29,525 nucleotides of DNA. Origin: Candidatus Sumerlaeota bacterium (GTDB lineage Bacteria > Sumerlaeota > Sumerlaeia > JAFGJS01). A program made the position numbers and the translations under genes. Where the stretch lies: the NCBI GenBank assembly GCA_016928995.1, contig JAFGJS010000103.1:1-29525 (forward strand), read 5' to 3'. The number at the start of each line of letters is the position of its first letter. Positions within the stretch are counted from its first letter, which is position 1. The notes below the pieces were generated by a model. The model ran no database searches and was not told the DNA's origin. It was given only the letters and a program-made list of their open reading frames with translations. This document shows positions 2,612-10,991 of this stretch, one piece after another.

Positions 2612-2947
2612 ATGGCTGAAAAAGAGCAGAAAAGCGGACAAGATCGGTTGGCCAAACGCAACAATTGGAAATTGACGCTCGTACTATGCTACTCTTTGCT
2701 GATCTGCAATATTTACATGATATGGCATTGTTATTACACGATACTTGCGATGCATAACGATGACATCCATGAGAAGTCTATTGGGCTGTACGAAAATAGA
2801 CTGATTGCGTCAATAGCGACACTGATTATGCTATGTGGAATAATCGCTTTGGCGCATGTTTTAAGGCATAAAGACAATCTGAAAAAAAAGGATGCAGGCA
2901 TGAATCAAGAGAAACATAAATTGTCCCGAAGGGACAACGGAACGTAG
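2612..2947 (+). CDS. Small two-helix membrane protein of unknown function, AT-rich
   Basis: I do not recognise this 111-residue protein. It has a charged N-terminus (residues 1-19), a hydrophobic helix at about 20-41 (WKLTLVLCYSLLICNIYMIW), a short polar loop and a second helix at about 64-84 (IASIATLIMLCGIIALAHVL), then a Lys-rich tail. It starts 7 bases after the trpG stop, with GGAG at 2594-2597 inside trpG. Composition differs sharply from trp genes: 60 bases at 2701-2760 hold 21 G+C. The last eight residues (from Leu104) are encoded by the left palindromic arm of the following transposase element, so the natural C-terminus may have been replaced or extended by that insertion. It looks horizontally acquired. 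Confidence 0.65.
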   Translation: MAEKEQKSGQDRLAKRNNWKLTLVLCYSLLICNIYMIWHCYYTILAMHNDDIHEKSIGLYENRLIASIATLIMLCGIIALAHVLRHKDNLKKKDAGMNQEKHKLSRRDNGT

Positions 2948-3624
2948 CCGGGGATGAAGCGAGGCCTTCAGGCTGAGCGAGTCCCCGGAAAAGACGAAAC
3001 AAAAAAGAGTCCCGAAGGGACGAAGGAACAACATCGCAGCAACAGGATTATGAAAATGGCGGGCACATTCACCAATTTGAATTACCACCTCGTCTTCAGC
3101 ACAAAACACCGCCGGCCAATGATCTCGGAGGAAATCCGCCCGCGCCTGTACGCATACCTGGGCGGGATTATCAAGGATGACGATGGAGTTCTCTATCAAA
3201 TCGGAGGCATGCCCGACCATGTGCATCTATTGATCCGCTATAAGCCGGCTCGCGACATTTCGCATTTGATGCAGGATTTGAAGAGCCATTCCAGCGGCTG
3301 GGTGCATAAAACATTTTCCGGGCATGATCAGTTTCAATGGCAGGAAGGCTACGGAGCGTTCACGGTCAGCAAGTCGCAATGCGCTCGAGTTCAGAAATAC
3401 ATCGCCAATCAGGAGGGTCATCACCAAAATAGGGATTTCAAATCGGAATTCATTGCGTTGCTGAATGCGCATGGATGCGAGTATGATGAAAAATACATTT
3501 GGGATTGAACGTCATTTCCTGCGTCCCTCCGGGACTTGATGAGACGTCTGATTTTCCGGAGACTCGCTCAGCCTGAGGGCTTCGCTCATCCCCGGCTACA
3601 TTCCTTTGTCCCTTCGGGACAAAA
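2921..3624 (+). mobile_element. RAYT transposase unit with mirrored palindromic arms
   Basis: A Y1 transposase gene is enclosed by two roughly 105-base arms in inverted orientation. The left arm (2921-3027) reads outward to inward: palindrome GTCCCGAAGGGAC (2923-2935), then GTAGCCGGGGATGAAGCGAG and on to GAGTCCCCGG, then a second GTCCCGAAGGGAC (3009-3021). The right arm (3522-3624) mirrors this: GTCCCTCCGGGAC (3523-3535), CCGGAGACTCGCTCAGCC running to CATCCCCGGCTAC, then GTCCCTTCGGGAC (3608-3620). This is the layout of REP sequences flanking their RAYT. It sits inside the trp operon between trpG and trpD. Confidence 0.85.
3050..3508 (+). CDS. REP-associated tyrosine transposase (IS200-like, Y1/HUH family)
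   Basis: This 152-residue HUH endonuclease of the Y1 (TnpA_REP/IS200-like) class is expected to nick and rejoin single-stranded palindromic DNA. The opening FTNLNYHLVFSTKHRRP is typical. The metal-binding HUH motif is His57-Val58-His59 in GMPDHVHLLI, and Tyr117 in ARVQKYIANQEGHH is the probable catalytic tyrosine. Length and motifs look intact, so it may be active. ATG 3050 was chosen because the longer reading from 2954 runs through the left palindromic arm. The flanking mirrored arms are the likely substrates. It lies in the trp operon in the same direction and is probably co-transcribed. Confidence 0.9.
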   Translation: MKMAGTFTNLNYHLVFSTKHRRPMISEEIRPRLYAYLGGIIKDDDGVLYQIGGMPDHVHLLIRYKPARDISHLMQDLKSHSSGWVHKTFSGHDQFQWQEGYGAFTVSKSQCARVQKYIANQEGHHQNRDFKSEFIALLNAHGCEYDEKYIWD

Positions 3625-4763: not shown

Positions 4764-4836
4764 TCACGCTGAGGCGCAGGGGCGCGGAGATGAGAATCAT
4801 TCATTTTTTTCTCTGCGTCTCCGCGCCTCTGCGTGA
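4764..4836. repeat. Inverted repeat (CGCAGAGGCGC type) between trpD and trpC
   Basis: The left arm from 4764 (TCACGCTGAGGCGCAGG then GGCGCGGAGATGAG) is nearly complementary to the right arm at 4811-4836 (CTCTGCGTCTCCGCGCCTCT then GCGTGA), with a short AT-rich loop containing a run of seven T at 4804-4810. It would form a long hairpin in operon mRNA. Units of similar design lie at 8709-8824, 11878-12108 and 13619-13894. The in-frame GTG at 4833 upstream of trpC lies in the right arm and is probably not used. Confidence 0.65.
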
Positions 4837-4859
4837 GATCTCACGTTTGGAAAATTGAT

Positions 4860-5645
4860 ATGACTGTTCTGGATAAAATTGTTGAGTATAAAAAAGAATT
4901 CGTGGCCGCGTGCAAATCAGCCAAGCCTCTCGCCGAGGTGCGGCGCGAGGCCGAGGGGGCGCCGGCGCCGCGCGATATGCTCGCCTCGCTCCGGCAAGGC
5001 GACGGCGTGCACGTGATCGCCGAGTGCAAGAAGGCCTCGCCCAGCAAGGGCGTGATCCGGCCGGACTATGATCCGGCGGCCATCGCCCGGTCGTATGCGA
5101 TGCATGGCGCCGCGGCGATCTCGTGCCTGACCGATGAAAAGTTTTTTCAAGGCTCGCTCGATCATCTGCGCGCCGTGCGGGCGGCCGTGGACATCTCCGT
5201 GATGCGCAAGGAATTCATCATCGACGAGTATCAGATCTACGAAGCGCGCGCCGCCGGAGCGGACGCGGCGTTGCTGATCTGCTCGATCCTCGACGAGGCG
5301 CAGCTGCGTGACTTCACCGCGCTGCTGCGCGAACTCGGCATGCATGCGCTGGTGGAGATTTACGATCCGGCGGAAACGCCGATGGCCCTGCGCCACAACA
5401 CCGGCATCGTCGGTGTGAACAACCGCGATCTGCGCAACTTCGAGGTGGACCTGCGGCACACCGCCACCGTGGCGAAAGAAGTTGGCGACTCTGCGCTGCT
5501 GGTCAGCGAAAGCGGCATCTTCACCCCGGAAGACGTCGCCTACATCCACAGCGCCGGCGCCAAAGCCATCCTCGTTGGCGAAGCTTTCATGCGGGCGGAG
5601 GATCCGGGAATAGAGCTAAAATATTTGATTGAGCAGCTAAGATGA
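4860..5645 (+). CDS. trpC: Indole-3-glycerol phosphate synthase
   Basis: TrpC closes the ring of CdRP to indole-3-glycerol phosphate. The 261-residue TIM barrel contains the catalytic signature AECKKASPSKG (Glu55 onward), Lys117 in MRKEFI, Glu166 in LVEIYDP, GVNNRDL at about 185-191 and SESGI at 216-220. ATG 4860 is chosen over GTG 4833, which lies inside the hairpin repeat and adds nine unconserved residues. The stop overlaps the start of the next gene as ATGA (5642-5645), an unusual coupling because that gene is not part of the pathway. TrpC and TrpF are separate proteins here. Confidence 0.98.
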   Translation: MTVLDKIVEYKKEFVAACKSAKPLAEVRREAEGAPAPRDMLASLRQGDGVHVIAECKKASPSKGVIRPDYDPAAIARSYAMHGAAAISCLTDEKFFQGSLDHLRAVRAAVDISVMRKEFIIDEYQIYEARAAGADAALLICSILDEAQLRDFTALLRELGMHALVEIYDPAETPMALRHNTGIVGVNNRDLRNFEVDLRHTATVAKEVGDSALLVSESGIFTPEDVAYIHSAGAKAILVGEAFMRAEDPGIELKYLIEQLR

Positions 5646-6757
5646 ATAATAAAACATACACAAATTGCTTATTGTGCGGACATCGGCTGGATGGAGCTGC
5701 GGAGTCTATTGAAAATCATAATCTTCCTCTGACATCAGAATGGAGGGGTATGTATATATTTAATTGTCGGGTATGCACAACATACGCATTATCAGAGAAC
5801 GACATCCATAGTGAAATCCTTAATCGTTACACACAACCTCAGAAATCTTTATTAAGCCATATTTTGTGCAAGAGATCAAAAAGCGGAGCGTTAGATAAAA
5901 AAGGATTTTATGTTACTGAAAGTTACATAAATTCAATTCTTAAAAATGAAAAACTTCCTAATCCAGGCGAGCAATATGAAATCTTAATTCATTGGCTAGG
6001 CGATTCGGATAAACCTTTTGGTGAATATTCAGAAGCAAGACATGCAAATATCAAAGCAATCATCGGTGCGCAATCAGATGAGAATATCAAAATTATTCTC
6101 AATGCTTTATTGCGAGACAAATTAATCGAATCAGAGAATATTGATGAGTATAATGGAATAGGAGGAGAAAGTACAAACATCAATCCAGAACTTGCGACAT
6201 ATGGTAGCTTATATCATCTCAGGCTTAGTTTAGAAGGATGGAAAAAGTATCAAGAGTTAAAGAAGGGGCGTACTGAAAGTAAAAGAGTCTTTATGGCAAT
6301 GCCATTCAAAAATGAAAATGATTCCGTTGGCGATCCGTATGGAATCAGGCAAACCTACGAGCGCCTTAAAGATTATGTCAAGCAAACGGGTTTTGAGTTG
6401 ATCAATCCTTTGCTGGATGAAGAAAAGGCCGGGCAAATTATTGAGCGGCTTCAGGTGGAAATTAGAAATTCTAAATTTATGATCGCCGATCTTACGGAAA
6501 GTAATAATGGTGCTTATTGGGAAGCGGGATATGCGAAAGGTTTGGGAAAAGAAGTGATTTATATATGTTCGGAAGAATGGCTGAATGAAGTTGATGAAGA
6601 TGGCAAACCGAAGCATAAGATTCATTTTGATACATTGCAATCATTGACCATACGTTGGAATAAAGATGATTTGCACGCTGTAGGAGAAAGATTGAAGGCT
6701 GTGATTCGTAATACTTTCCCGAGTGAAGCGATACAGGAAGATCCGAAAGATGTGTAA
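5642..6757 (+). CDS. AT-rich zinc-ribbon protein with nucleoside deoxyribosyltransferase-like C-terminal domain
   Basis: The protein has 371 residues and I know no gene name for it. The N-terminus carries a zinc-ribbon-like cysteine set (Cys9, Cys12, Cys42, Cys45). A middle region (about 60-205) is largely helical with no family I recognise. The C-terminal part (about 215-360) resembles the nucleoside 2-deoxyribosyltransferase/TIR-like fold: VFMAMPF at 216-222, then IADLTESNNGAYWEAGYAKG at 281-300 with Glu294 in the usual catalytic place, and HFDTLQ late. Relatives of this fold in immune proteins cleave nucleotides or NAD; activity here is inference. Composition is foreign (21 G+C in 60 bases at 5701-5760), yet its ATG overlaps the trpC stop. 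Candidate antiphage effector. Confidence 0.75.
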   Translation: MNNKTYTNCLLCGHRLDGAAESIENHNLPLTSEWRGMYIFNCRVCTTYALSENDIHSEILNRYTQPQKSLLSHILCKRSKSGALDKKGFYVTESYINSILKNEKLPNPGEQYEILIHWLGDSDKPFGEYSEARHANIKAIIGAQSDENIKIILNALLRDKLIESENIDEYNGIGGESTNINPELATYGSLYHLRLSLEGWKKYQELKKGRTESKRVFMAMPFKNENDSVGDPYGIRQTYERLKDYVKQTGFELINPLLDEEKAGQIIERLQVEIRNSKFMIADLTESNNGAYWEAGYAKGLGKEVIYICSEEWLNEVDEDGKPKHKIHFDTLQSLTIRWNKDDLHAVGERLKAVIRNTFPSEAIQEDPKDV

Positions 6758-6766
6758 GTACATATA

Positions 6767-7011
6767 CCTTGGAGTGCGGCGGCCATGCCGCCGCCTTGGA
6801 TCGGCGTATGCTTACTTAATAGCCTGTTGAAAAACGTAGCGCCAGCGTCTCGCTGGCTTAGAGGGATTGCAGAGCATTGGATGGATGCCGACGAGACGCC
6901 GGCGCTACAATTTTGGCTGGCAATCCTTTTTCAACGGGCTGTTAGCGTGCTGGTGTAATTGTGCGTAGTTGGCACTGTATACGGCGCAGGCATGGCCTGC
7001 GCAGTCCAAGG
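6767..7011. repeat. Palindromic-ended intergenic element (CTTTGGA type), copy 2
   Basis: The left arm at 6767-6795 (CCTTGGAGTGCGGCGGCCAT then GCCGCCGCC) faces a right arm at 6982-7011 (CGGCGCAGGCATGGCCTGCG then CAGTCCAAGG). The arms match the unit at 131-240. The centre is interrupted by an unrelated palindromic element (6821-6940). This fills the 303-base gap between the deoxyribosyltransferase-like gene and the channel gene; no coding sequence was seen in it. Confidence 0.65.
6821..6940. repeat. Nested inverted-repeat element inside the CTTTGGA-type unit
   Basis: The termini AGCCTGTTGAAAAA (6821-6834) and TTTTTCAACGGGCT (6927-6940) are near-perfect inverted copies. Just inside are GTAGCGCCAGCGTCTCG (6836-6852) and CGAGACGCCGGCGCTAC (6892-6908), again inverted, and GGATTGC (6864-6870) with GCAATCC (6920-6926). 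It looks like a separate MITE-like or palindromic insertion that landed in the outer unit. Confidence 0.65.
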
Positions 7012-7060: not shown

Positions 7061-8074
7061 ATGTCCCATCGAAAGCATGAGCATCAGTTGCCGCGCGGGT
7101 ATACGAATTGGTTTATTCGCAAGGTGGATGATCTTTCGTTGAGCGGGGTGCTGTGGGGCGGATTGTTGCTATACGTAGCGGTGGCGGTCGGATTTTCGGT
7201 GTTGTTGCAGGTGTGCGCCTGGGCGGGGTGGACGATGATTTATGACGGCGGCGAGCCGGTGACGGGCTTTGGCGGAATTTTGTATTTTAATTTCGTCACG
7301 ATCCTCACGGTGGGTTATGGCGATCTGCATCCGGCTGGTTTGGGGCGCATGCTGGCGACGATTGAGGCGTTGATCGGCGTCGGGCTGTTCGGCGGCATCA
7401 TCGGCGTGGTGGTGCTGAAACTGACGCAGCCGGCGAAGAACTCAATCGTGTTCTCGCATCGGGCGTACTACGCGATTGACGAGGAGCGGTTTTTCATCAT
7501 GTTTCTCAACACGAGCCATTCGCCGCTGGTGAACGCGGAGATTTCATACGTGCTGAAACTCGGCCATCGCAACGAGGTCAAACCCTCCAAGACTACGCCG
7601 TATATCGCCGATTCGGTGTGGATTCTGAACCTGAGCCAGGCTTCGTACAACGACCTGCGCACCATCGAACTTTACGATGACGACGGGATCAAATTCGCGA
7701 TCAGCGGCTCGTACGGCTTCACGAATTTCGCCACGTCCGTGCGCTACGATCTGTGCGATATTCTGGCTGTGCCCAGCCGCGCGCCGTTGGAGCGCGAGTC
7801 GTTGCTCATCCATCCGCGGCTGGGCGATCCTGAATTCGAAAACATCTTCCATTATGAACCGGAAGGCGCGAGACCGTTCGCCGATTACGCGCACAGCATC
7901 GGCGCCAGCGCGAAGAAGGAGCAAACCAACAAGGCGATTGAGCTGACGCGAATCGGGTTGAAAATTCCCGGGCCCGGCGATTCGCCGTTGAAGGATAATC
8001 AAACCGTGATCTTCAAGAGCGAGTCGACGGATCAAAACGAGATGAATTCAATTTTCAATCAAAGGAAGAAATGA
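7061..8074 (+). CDS. KirBac-like potassium channel
   Basis: The 337-residue membrane protein has two transmembrane helices (about 29-55 and 96-121) around a pore loop with the potassium selectivity filter TVGYGD (83-88). The cytoplasmic part (about 125-300) contains FSHRAYYAIDEERFFIMFLN and LVNAEISYVL, which resemble the beta-rich domain of inward-rectifier (KirBac) channels, so it is more likely KirBac-like than MthK-like; there is no RCK domain. ATG 7061 follows AGGA at 7049-7052; a longer reading from TTG 7040 is less likely. It lies in the trp operon, ending 3 bases before trpF, whose ribosome site is inside this gene. A link with tryptophan synthesis is unknown. Confidence 0.85.
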   Translation: MSHRKHEHQLPRGYTNWFIRKVDDLSLSGVLWGGLLLYVAVAVGFSVLLQVCAWAGWTMIYDGGEPVTGFGGILYFNFVTILTVGYGDLHPAGLGRMLATIEALIGVGLFGGIIGVVVLKLTQPAKNSIVFSHRAYYAIDEERFFIMFLNTSHSPLVNAEISYVLKLGHRNEVKPSKTTPYIADSVWILNLSQASYNDLRTIELYDDDGIKFAISGSYGFTNFATSVRYDLCDILAVPSRAPLERESLLIHPRLGDPEFENIFHYEPEGARPFADYAHSIGASAKKEQTNKAIELTRIGLKIPGPGDSPLKDNQTVIFKSESTDQNEMNSIFNQRKK

Positions 8075-10109: not shown

Positions 10110-10991
10110 ATGTCGTTACAAAATTTTAAGTTTCAATCGTTTCAAGCAGGAATCGCGTTGATTGCGATGATGTTTTGTCTGAGCGCCACATACCGGACGG
10201 CCGTGGCTGATGAGGTGGAAGTGGCGATTGAGGGAGGAGACCTCATCACCACGACTACGATCAAGAGCACGCCTAAAGTAATGCATTACACGCTCGACAC
10301 CAGCGCCACCTTGGCTACAACGCCGACCTTGGTCGTGCATGATCCCATCCGGATTCGCGCGGTGTTCAACAAGGATAACGCGAATTTCATCACGCACGAA
10401 ATTTCCCGCTTCGGCGCCTTTCATGTGTTTTGCGACGCAGAAGTGGCGAAACATTGGGTCAGCCTGAAAGCGCCGGATGTCTCGCTGGAGGAGGCGATTC
10501 AATGCGTGGTTGACCAGGGTCAGGGGGAGTGGGTGGCGTATAACTGGCGCTATAAAAATACGTATATGATTTCGCACAAGGATAATTTCAAGAAGCTGAT
10601 GGCGTTTGATTGCCTGGTTAATCTTGATCCCGATCCGATCGTCACCAAGGCGCGCATCGTGGATATCAACGTGATTCTGGCGGAGCTCAGCAAGCAGTGC
10701 GCCGAAGTGGGAATGCCGTATGAAATCACATACCAGGGAAACGGCGGCGATCCGCCGAAACCGGCGCTGTTTCTCCGCAGCGCGCCGTTGTCATCGGCGT
10801 TATGCCGTTTGGCGCTGTTGGAAGATTTGACCGTCAAGCAGATCGAAGGGACGAATAAAATCATCCTCATTCAAAACAAGGGCGATGAGATGTATTCCTC
10901 AGGCAATGGCGGCGCCGCCGAAGAGGAACCCGATGTGAAAGAGGAAGGCAAGACGCAAGCTGGCGACGAAGCGACGACACAGGTTCAGTAG
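10110..10991 (+). CDS. Secreted protein of unknown function between trpB and trpA
   Basis: The 293-residue protein begins with a signal peptide (hydrophobic GIALIAMMFCLSA, probable cleavage after Ala33 in TAVA-DE), so it is exported. A segment around residues 85-155 (RFGAFHVFCDAEVAKHWVSL then KAPDVSLEEAIQCVVDQ) has the look of secretin/TonB short N-terminal (STN-like) modules, and a second similar segment may lie around 185-250; this is a weak resemblance. The C-terminus is acidic and low-complexity. GGAG at 10101-10104, 5 bases before ATG, is a strong ribosome site. Composition resembles the surrounding genes. I do not recognise the family, and no role in tryptophan synthesis is evident. Confidence 0.75.
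   Translation: MSLQNFKFQSFQAGIALIAMMFCLSATYRTAVADEVEVAIEGGDLITTTTIKSTPKVMHYTLDTSATLATTPTLVVHDPIRIRAVFNKDNANFITHEISRFGAFHVFCDAEVAKHWVSLKAPDVSLEEAIQCVVDQGQGEWVAYNWRYKNTYMISHKDNFKKLMAFDCLVNLDPDPIVTKARIVDINVILAELSKQCAEVGMPYEITYQGNGGDPPKPALFLRSAPLSSALCRLALLEDLTVKQIEGTNKIILIQNKGDEMYSSGNGGAAEEEPDVKEEGKTQAGDEATTQVQ

What the first reader, a model, noticed from the sequence alone, without database searches (positions are those of the whole stretch)
5642..6757. AT-rich zinc-ribbon/deoxyribosyltransferase-like gene translationally coupled to trpC
The gene's composition (21 G+C of 60 bases at 5701-5760) contrasts with trpC (37 of 60 at 5161-5220), yet it starts inside the trpC stop codon as ATGA. The protein joins CxxC pairs (Cys9/12, Cys42/45), an unassigned middle and a C-terminal nucleoside-deoxyribosyltransferase/TIR-like domain with Glu294 in the catalytic place. 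Such folds serve as nucleotide- or NAD-cleaving effectors in bacterial immunity. A stand-alone sensor-effector protein of this architecture, hidden in a biosynthetic operon, is the best candidate here for an undescribed defence system.
Basis: partly seen in the sequence, partly recalled or inferred. Interest (0 to 1): 0.78.

Follow-up and report, generated by a model that had tools for sequence, protein, structure and literature searches.

The report
Solo zinc-ribbon/winged-helix/N-glycosidase candidate defence gene
A foreign, AT-rich single gene sits in a bacterium's tryptophan operon and encodes a sensor-plus-enzyme protein of a family that travels alone between distant bacteria and repeatedly lands at tRNA genes, near prophage or defence genes and, once, in the place of a toxin gene, so it is probably an undescribed one-gene anti-phage (cell-suicide) system, still untested.

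Summary
The gene is at 5642-6757, overlaps the trpC stop as ATGA, and is foreign: 37% G+C and 32% at third codon positions, against 62% G+C for trpC, the lowest 1.1-kb stretch in the window. Forty-four relatives lie in many phyla. The gene is rare and patchy, and poorer in G+C than its surroundings in 36 of 36 loci. It is enriched next to tRNA/tmRNA genes, inserts as a bare 1-kb unit (Thalassospira empty site), fills the toxin slot of a higBA pair (Brevundimonas), and also lies in phage contigs and beside restriction-modification, DUF4062 and HEC-01/AriA-like genes. No relative read carries it after trpC, so the operon position is incidental. Best reading: a stand-alone abortive-infection effector that works like retron-Eco1's NDT effector or Swarozyc but belongs to neither family. 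Substrate and trigger are untested.

The parts
5642..6757 (+). whole gene: zinc ribbon - helical linker - winged helix - DNPH1/NDT/TIR-fold N-glycosidase, 371 aa
5642..5645 (+). ATGA overlap of the gene's start with the trpC stop codon (possible translational coupling in this genome only)
   Evidence: not seen in the 19 relatives read
5666..5800 (+). zinc-ribbon domain, Cys9/Cys12 and Cys42/Cys45 (about residues 9-53)
   Evidence: conserved CxxC...CxxC in relatives; weak zinc-ribbon Pfam matches among relatives
5963..6274 (+). MarR-type winged helix-turn-helix, residues 108-211
   Evidence: AlphaFold plus VIA-align Z 9.3, rmsd 2.3 A over 76 residues to MarR 2qww; the listed rows span this stretch and nearly all are DNA-binding regulators
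6275..6754 (+). DNPH1/MilB/NDT/TIR-fold catalytic domain, residues 212-371
   Evidence: PF05014; VIA-align Z 13.7, rmsd 2.9 A over 133 residues to DNPH1 9i57; SPARTA TIR Z 13.0
6521..6523 (+). Glu294 codon, predicted catalytic residue in NNGAYWEAGYA
   Evidence: invariant in the 31-member alignment; aligned with the Glu of GYELGRA in Rcl/DNPH1
4872..5645 (+). trpC (indole-3-glycerol phosphate synthase), host gene upstream with a normal C-terminus (coding start lies slightly upstream of 4872)
6817..6950 (.). imperfect palindromic repeat directly downstream of the gene; MITE/REP-like, 24 matches in the own genome, about 10 of them over most of its length
7061..8074 (+). ion-channel gene (Ion_trans_2) between this gene and trpF; neighbour, not thought to be part of the system

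Best explanation
The gene encodes a stand-alone, horizontally acquired defence effector. The zinc ribbon and MarR-type winged helix would sense something made during phage infection (a phage protein or an unusual nucleic acid). The signal would release or oligomerise the C-terminal DNPH1/NDT/TIR-fold domain, whose Glu294 would cleave an N-glycosidic bond, most likely in NAD+, otherwise in (deoxy)nucleotides, so that the infected cell stops growing before phage is released. Shown here: the domain make-up, the invariant Glu, foreign origin, single-gene mobility, and enrichment at tRNA/tmRNA sites. Inferred: enzyme activity, substrate, sensing role of the N-terminus, and anti-phage function. In this genome the gene is probably co-transcribed with trpC by accident of where it landed.
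For: Fold and catalytic site: PF05014 1.2e-7, Z 13.7 to DNPH1 and 13.0 to SPARTA TIR, Glu294 aligned to the Rcl Glu, and Asn288/Gly290/Tyr292/Trp293/Glu294, His328-Phe-Asp and Arg356 invariant. 28 of 31 members match the PADLOC 'TIR effector' model (best 5.8e-8). Sensor-like N-terminus: zinc ribbon plus winged helix. Mobility: GC below its locus in 36/36 (Wilcoxon p 3e-11). 10 of 14 tRNA/tmRNA genes lie within 600 bp, in 9.3% of the sequence (p 3e-8). Homology to 15 Ralstonia-like congeners stops at the 3' end of tRNA-Ser just upstream. A bare 1,043-bp insertion replaces about 59 bp in Thalassospira. Defence/toxin company: groEL-[gene]-higA where relatives have groEL-higB-higA or groEL-DUF3800-higA; type I and III R-M, HerA, HEC-01/AriA-like; DUF4062, DNA methylases; integrases and phage contigs L048, L049. 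Rare: 3/398 in Burkholderiaceae, 3/40 in its own phylum.
Against: No activity data. Many homologues (e.g. beside ruvCAB, tldD, fumC, gcv, trpC) have only housekeeping neighbours. The count of about 10 of 36 loci with defence-type neighbours has no matched control. The ORFs flanking the gene in the window match no known defence model. The winged helix could equally make it a transcription regulator. The tRNA test was made after a tRNA had been noticed at one locus.
Confidence: 0.6

Rival explanations
1. Toxin of a toxin-antitoxin or plasmid/prophage-addiction type: the enzyme domain poisons the cell and is restrained by its own N-terminal wHTH/zinc-ribbon part or by a neighbouring antitoxin, with selfish maintenance rather than phage defence as its main effect.
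For: In Brevundimonas L032 the gene occupies the higB slot 10 bp before higA; it is mobile and solitary.
Against: Only one such case was found; no constant small partner gene was seen beside the other homologues. The boundary between toxin-antitoxin and defence is blurred.
Confidence: 0.18
2. Nucleotide-salvage or house-cleaning enzyme with a ligand-sensing winged helix: a metabolic N-hydrolase of damaged nucleotides (DNPH1-like) picked up by chance.
For: Best structural matches are DNPH1, MilB and NDT enzymes; several homologues lie beside DNA-repair or metabolic genes such as ruvCAB and mutL.
Against: Rare, patchy, always AT-rich, often at tRNA/integrase/phage sites, with no constant metabolic neighbour; a zinc ribbon plus wHTH fusion is unusual for a salvage enzyme.
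Confidence: 0.12
3. Transcription regulator whose DNPH1/TIR-fold domain only binds a nucleotide ligand and does not catalyse.
For: MarR-type winged helix.
Against: Glu294 and the surrounding NNGAYWEAG are invariant or nearly so in 31 divergent members, as expected of a catalyst; no constant target operon.
Confidence: 0.06

Closest known systems
Retron type II-A (Retron-Eco1/Ec86) NDT effector
   Same: NDT-fold N-glycosidase combined with a winged helix-turn-helix; NAD+-hydrolysing filaments give phage immunity (gene key NDT, WH in PMC12548924 and the title of its reference 25; assignment of this effector to type II-A from own knowledge).
   Different: No reverse transcriptase or retron RNA in the window; here the order is zinc ribbon - winged helix - NDT and the protein stands alone.
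Swarozyc (DUF4062 TIR-like NADase)
   Same: TIR/NDT-like NADase with catalytic Glu fused to an HTH/winged auxiliary domain that senses phage portal; patchy, about 20% in defence islands (PMC13174449).
   Different: No DUF4062 match for the window protein, nor among the listed Pfam families for 31 members; enzyme domain is C-terminal, not N-terminal; a zinc ribbon is added. One relative (L012) lies next to a real DUF4062 gene.
SPARTA TIR-APAZ / short prokaryotic Argonaute
   Same: Enzyme-domain fold (Z 13.0, 3.3 A over 139 residues).
   Different: No APAZ domain and no Argonaute partner seen in the window or among the neighbours read.
DNPH1/Rcl and MilB nucleoside 5'-monophosphate N-hydrolases; nucleoside 2-deoxyribosyltransferases (PF05014)
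   Same: Closest fold and Pfam family, Glu position.
   Different: Those are single-domain metabolic enzymes; here the domain is fused to zinc ribbon and winged helix and travels on mobile DNA.
AbiJ-NTD1-NDT fusions predicted as abortive-infection proteins (PMC3710099, 2013)
   Same: Earlier prediction that NDT domains fused to sensor-like N-termini are conflict effectors.
   Different: N-terminus there is a mostly helical AbiJ-NTD1, not a zinc ribbon plus winged helix.

Membership tests
Nucleoside 2-deoxyribosyltransferase family (PF05014) | match over the curated Pfam cut-off | tested here: met
   32.3 bits against 28.8; all 31 members match at E up to 0.1
Nucleoside 2-deoxyribosyltransferase family (PF05014) | catalytic Glu in the WE/YE.G.A motif | tested here: met
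   Glu294 invariant, aligned with Rcl Glu
Nucleoside 2-deoxyribosyltransferase family (PF05014) | deoxyribosyl transfer or (d)NMP hydrolysis | not testable with these tools
   needs enzyme assay
Swarozyc (DUF4062) | PF13271 DUF4062 domain | tested here: not met
   the window protein matches PF05014 alone; PF13271 is not among the 25 families listed for the relatives (5 further single-member families not shown)
Swarozyc (DUF4062) | winged/HTH auxiliary sensor domain | tested here: inconclusive
   a MarR-type winged helix is present, but N-terminal to the enzyme domain; its kinship to the Swarozyc auxiliary domain was not tested
Swarozyc (DUF4062) | portal-triggered NAD+ hydrolysis | not testable with these tools
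   needs phage challenge and NAD assay
Retron type II-A | adjacent retron reverse transcriptase and structured RNA | tested here: not met
   no such ORF recognised in the window; no Rfam match in the window
Retron type II-A | NDT domain with winged-helix effector | tested here: met
   different domain order
SPARTA | Argonaute partner and APAZ domain | tested here: not met
   stand-alone gene; flanking ORFs are trp genes, a Y1 transposase and an ion channel
Thoeris / CBASS TIR effectors | ThsA or CD-NTase partner in the operon | tested here: not met
   flanking ORFs in the window; the PADLOC TIR-effector match of relatives is at domain level only

The most novel reading that the evidence does not exclude
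A new one-gene immune system in which a zinc-ribbon/winged-helix sensor binds a phage protein or modified phage nucleic acid and unleashes a DNPH1-type N-glycosidase on nucleotides or on DNA bases rather than on NAD+, spread as a bare single gene that lands at tRNA genes and can replace the toxin of a toxin-antitoxin pair.
Probability: 0.18. Interest if true: 0.78.

Novelty: new variant of a known kind. Interest (0 to 1): 0.55.

Why it matters
Most defence genes were found because they cluster in defence islands. This family is mostly solitary, often tucked behind housekeeping genes, and PADLOC sees it only through a general TIR model. If it protects against phage it adds a compact sensor-effector protein to the TIR/NDT branch of immunity shared with SARM1, plant TIRs and TEP1, and shows that single-gene systems can move as bare 1-kb units and swap with toxins.

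Tried and rejected
Conserved coupling to trpC: rejected, relatives have trpF, trpB, hisH and others after trpC. Hidden retron: no RT recognised, no Rfam match. GenBank phage collection: no match at E 1e-5. Plasmids: only distant, mostly C-terminal matches. NCBIfam: nothing meaningful. PADLOC with the window protein alone: nothing. Sequence search of the PDB found no significant relative. The tree does not name a donor: the window protein pairs with the one other full-length phylum member (support 88), long branches. A promoter/terminator scan around the gene was no better than shuffled sequence. Laying the whole genome in the script box was not possible. The census of defence models over 121 neighbours gives family counts only, without a matched control, so it is used descriptively. 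SpbK, SARM1 and other TIR structures also appear among the fold matches; Z differences under 1 do not let me choose between DNPH1-like and TIR-like by fold alone.

Full report
CHECK OF THE OBSERVATION. The ORF at 5642-6757(+) is intact and starts with the ATG of an ATGA that contains the trpC stop. The poorest 1116-bp stretch of the window is this gene, and nothing else falls below 46.8%.

WHAT THE PROTEIN IS. Pfam assigns PF05014 (nucleoside 2-deoxyribosyltransferase, E 1.2e-7, above the cut-off). A scan of GTDB genomes gave 44 relatives in Pseudomonadota, Planctomycetota, Elusimicrobiota, Chlorobiota, Latescibacterota and others. In an alignment of 31 members the four cysteines, N288, G290, Y292, W293, E294, the H328-F-D triad and R356 are invariant or nearly so. 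AlphaFold on that alignment (mean pLDDT 84) and structural comparison give residues 212-371 the fold of DNPH1 (Z 13.7, 2.9 A over 133 residues), MilB, deoxyribosyltransferases and the TIR of SPARTA (Z 13.0). The family profile aligns E294 with the Glu of GYELGRA in Rcl/DNPH1 (a weak sequence match, E 0.45), which from established knowledge is the catalytic residue. Residues 9-53 form a CxxC-CxxC zinc ribbon, by conserved cysteines and weak Pfam zinc-ribbon hits among relatives. Four relatives (L031, L033, L035, L038) match only from about query residue 104 on and appear to lack the ribbon.

FOREIGN AND MOBILE. Only three of 40 genomes of the window's whole phylum hold a match, one of them partial, and none of the 19 relatives' trpC loci that were read has it after trpC. 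In Burkholderiaceae it is in 3 of 398 genomes. The gene is poorer in G+C than its own locus in 36 of 36 relatives. tRNA/tmRNA genes are concentrated beside it: 10 of 14 within 600 bp although that zone is 9.3% of the sequence (p 3e-8). This test was made after I noticed the tRNA in L003. In the Ralstonia-like genome L003 the homology with all 15 congeners ends at the 3' end of a tRNA-Ser and the gene follows 124 bp later. In Thalassospira L028 a 1,043-bp insertion holding nothing but the gene replaces about 59 bp found in relatives.

DEFENCE AND TOXIN COMPANY. In Brevundimonas L032 the order is groEL-[gene]-higA; relatives have groEL-higB-higA (L097), groEL-DUF3800-higA (L098) or groEL followed by another single gene and higA (L099), so the family member fills a cargo slot otherwise held by a toxin or another single gene. 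Other relatives lie beside HsdM/HsdS (L010), a type III R-M pair (L027), HerA (L018), HEC-01/AriA-like ATPases (L033, L035, L038), DNA methylases (L029, L031), DUF3800 (L026) and a DUF4062 gene (L012), an integrase at tRNA-Pro (L008), and in phage contigs: L049 with integrase, XRE and an IrrE-type peptidase, L048 with HNH and methylase genes. By my reading about 10 of 36 loci have a defence-type gene within two ORFs. I had no matched control, and many others are solitary beside housekeeping genes (ruvCAB, tldD/pmbA, fumC, gcv, rluB/mutL).

HOW IT PROBABLY WORKS. From anatomy and precedent (retron-Eco1 makes NAD+-hydrolysing filaments, PMC12548924 ref. 25; DUF4062 Swarozyc is a TIR-like NADase whose HTH/winged domain binds the phage portal, PMC13174449), the zinc ribbon and winged helix would sense infection and the Glu294 enzyme would destroy NAD+ or nucleotides to stop the infected cell. 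Shown: architecture, conservation, mobility. Inferred: activity, substrate, trigger, benefit.

MEMBERSHIP. It is a PF05014-fold protein. It works like, but is not a member of, Swarozyc (no DUF4062), retrons (no RT or retron RNA in the window), SPARTA, Thoeris or CBASS (no partners). I found no description of this architecture in the searched literature; that library is incomplete.

VERDICT. It is a good candidate one-gene defence family, a new variant of a known kind, unproven until tested with phage.

Noticed in passing
window 2612-3508: The trp operon also carries, between trpG and trpD, a 111-aa unknown ORF and an IS200/RAYT-type Y1 transposase (PF01797, 3.8e-32); the operon collects foreign genes.
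   Followed up: partly
window 6817-6950: Imperfect palindromic element of about 135 bp directly after the gene; 24 matches in the own genome, about 10 over most of its length at 75-90% identity, i.e. a MITE/REP-like family.
   Followed up: partly
window 4766-4843: Second inverted repeat (GCGCAGGGGCGCGGAGA ... TCTCTGCGTCTCCGCGCC) in the trpD-trpC gap.
   Followed up: no
L032:7866-9189: groEL-[NDT gene]-higA without higB: an orphan HigA-like antitoxin 10 bp downstream of the family member, in the place where relatives have higB.
   Followed up: yes
L097-L100, after groEL: The stretch between groEL and higA in Brevundimonas is a hotspot of interchangeable single genes (higB, DUF3800, unknown 336-aa protein).
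   Followed up: partly
L031, L033, L035, L038: Ribbon-less short relatives (about 240-250 aa) lie beside other defence-type genes; in L033, L035 and L038 they precede a HEC-01/AriA-like AAA ATPase, a possible multi-gene variant of the system.
   Followed up: partly
L005:7989-8945, L007:7992-8960: Two homologues have an ORF shorter than the tblastn match, so the copies look disrupted (or the MAG sequence is faulty).
   Followed up: no
window 10110-10991: 293-aa protein without Pfam match sits between trpB and trpA.
   Followed up: no
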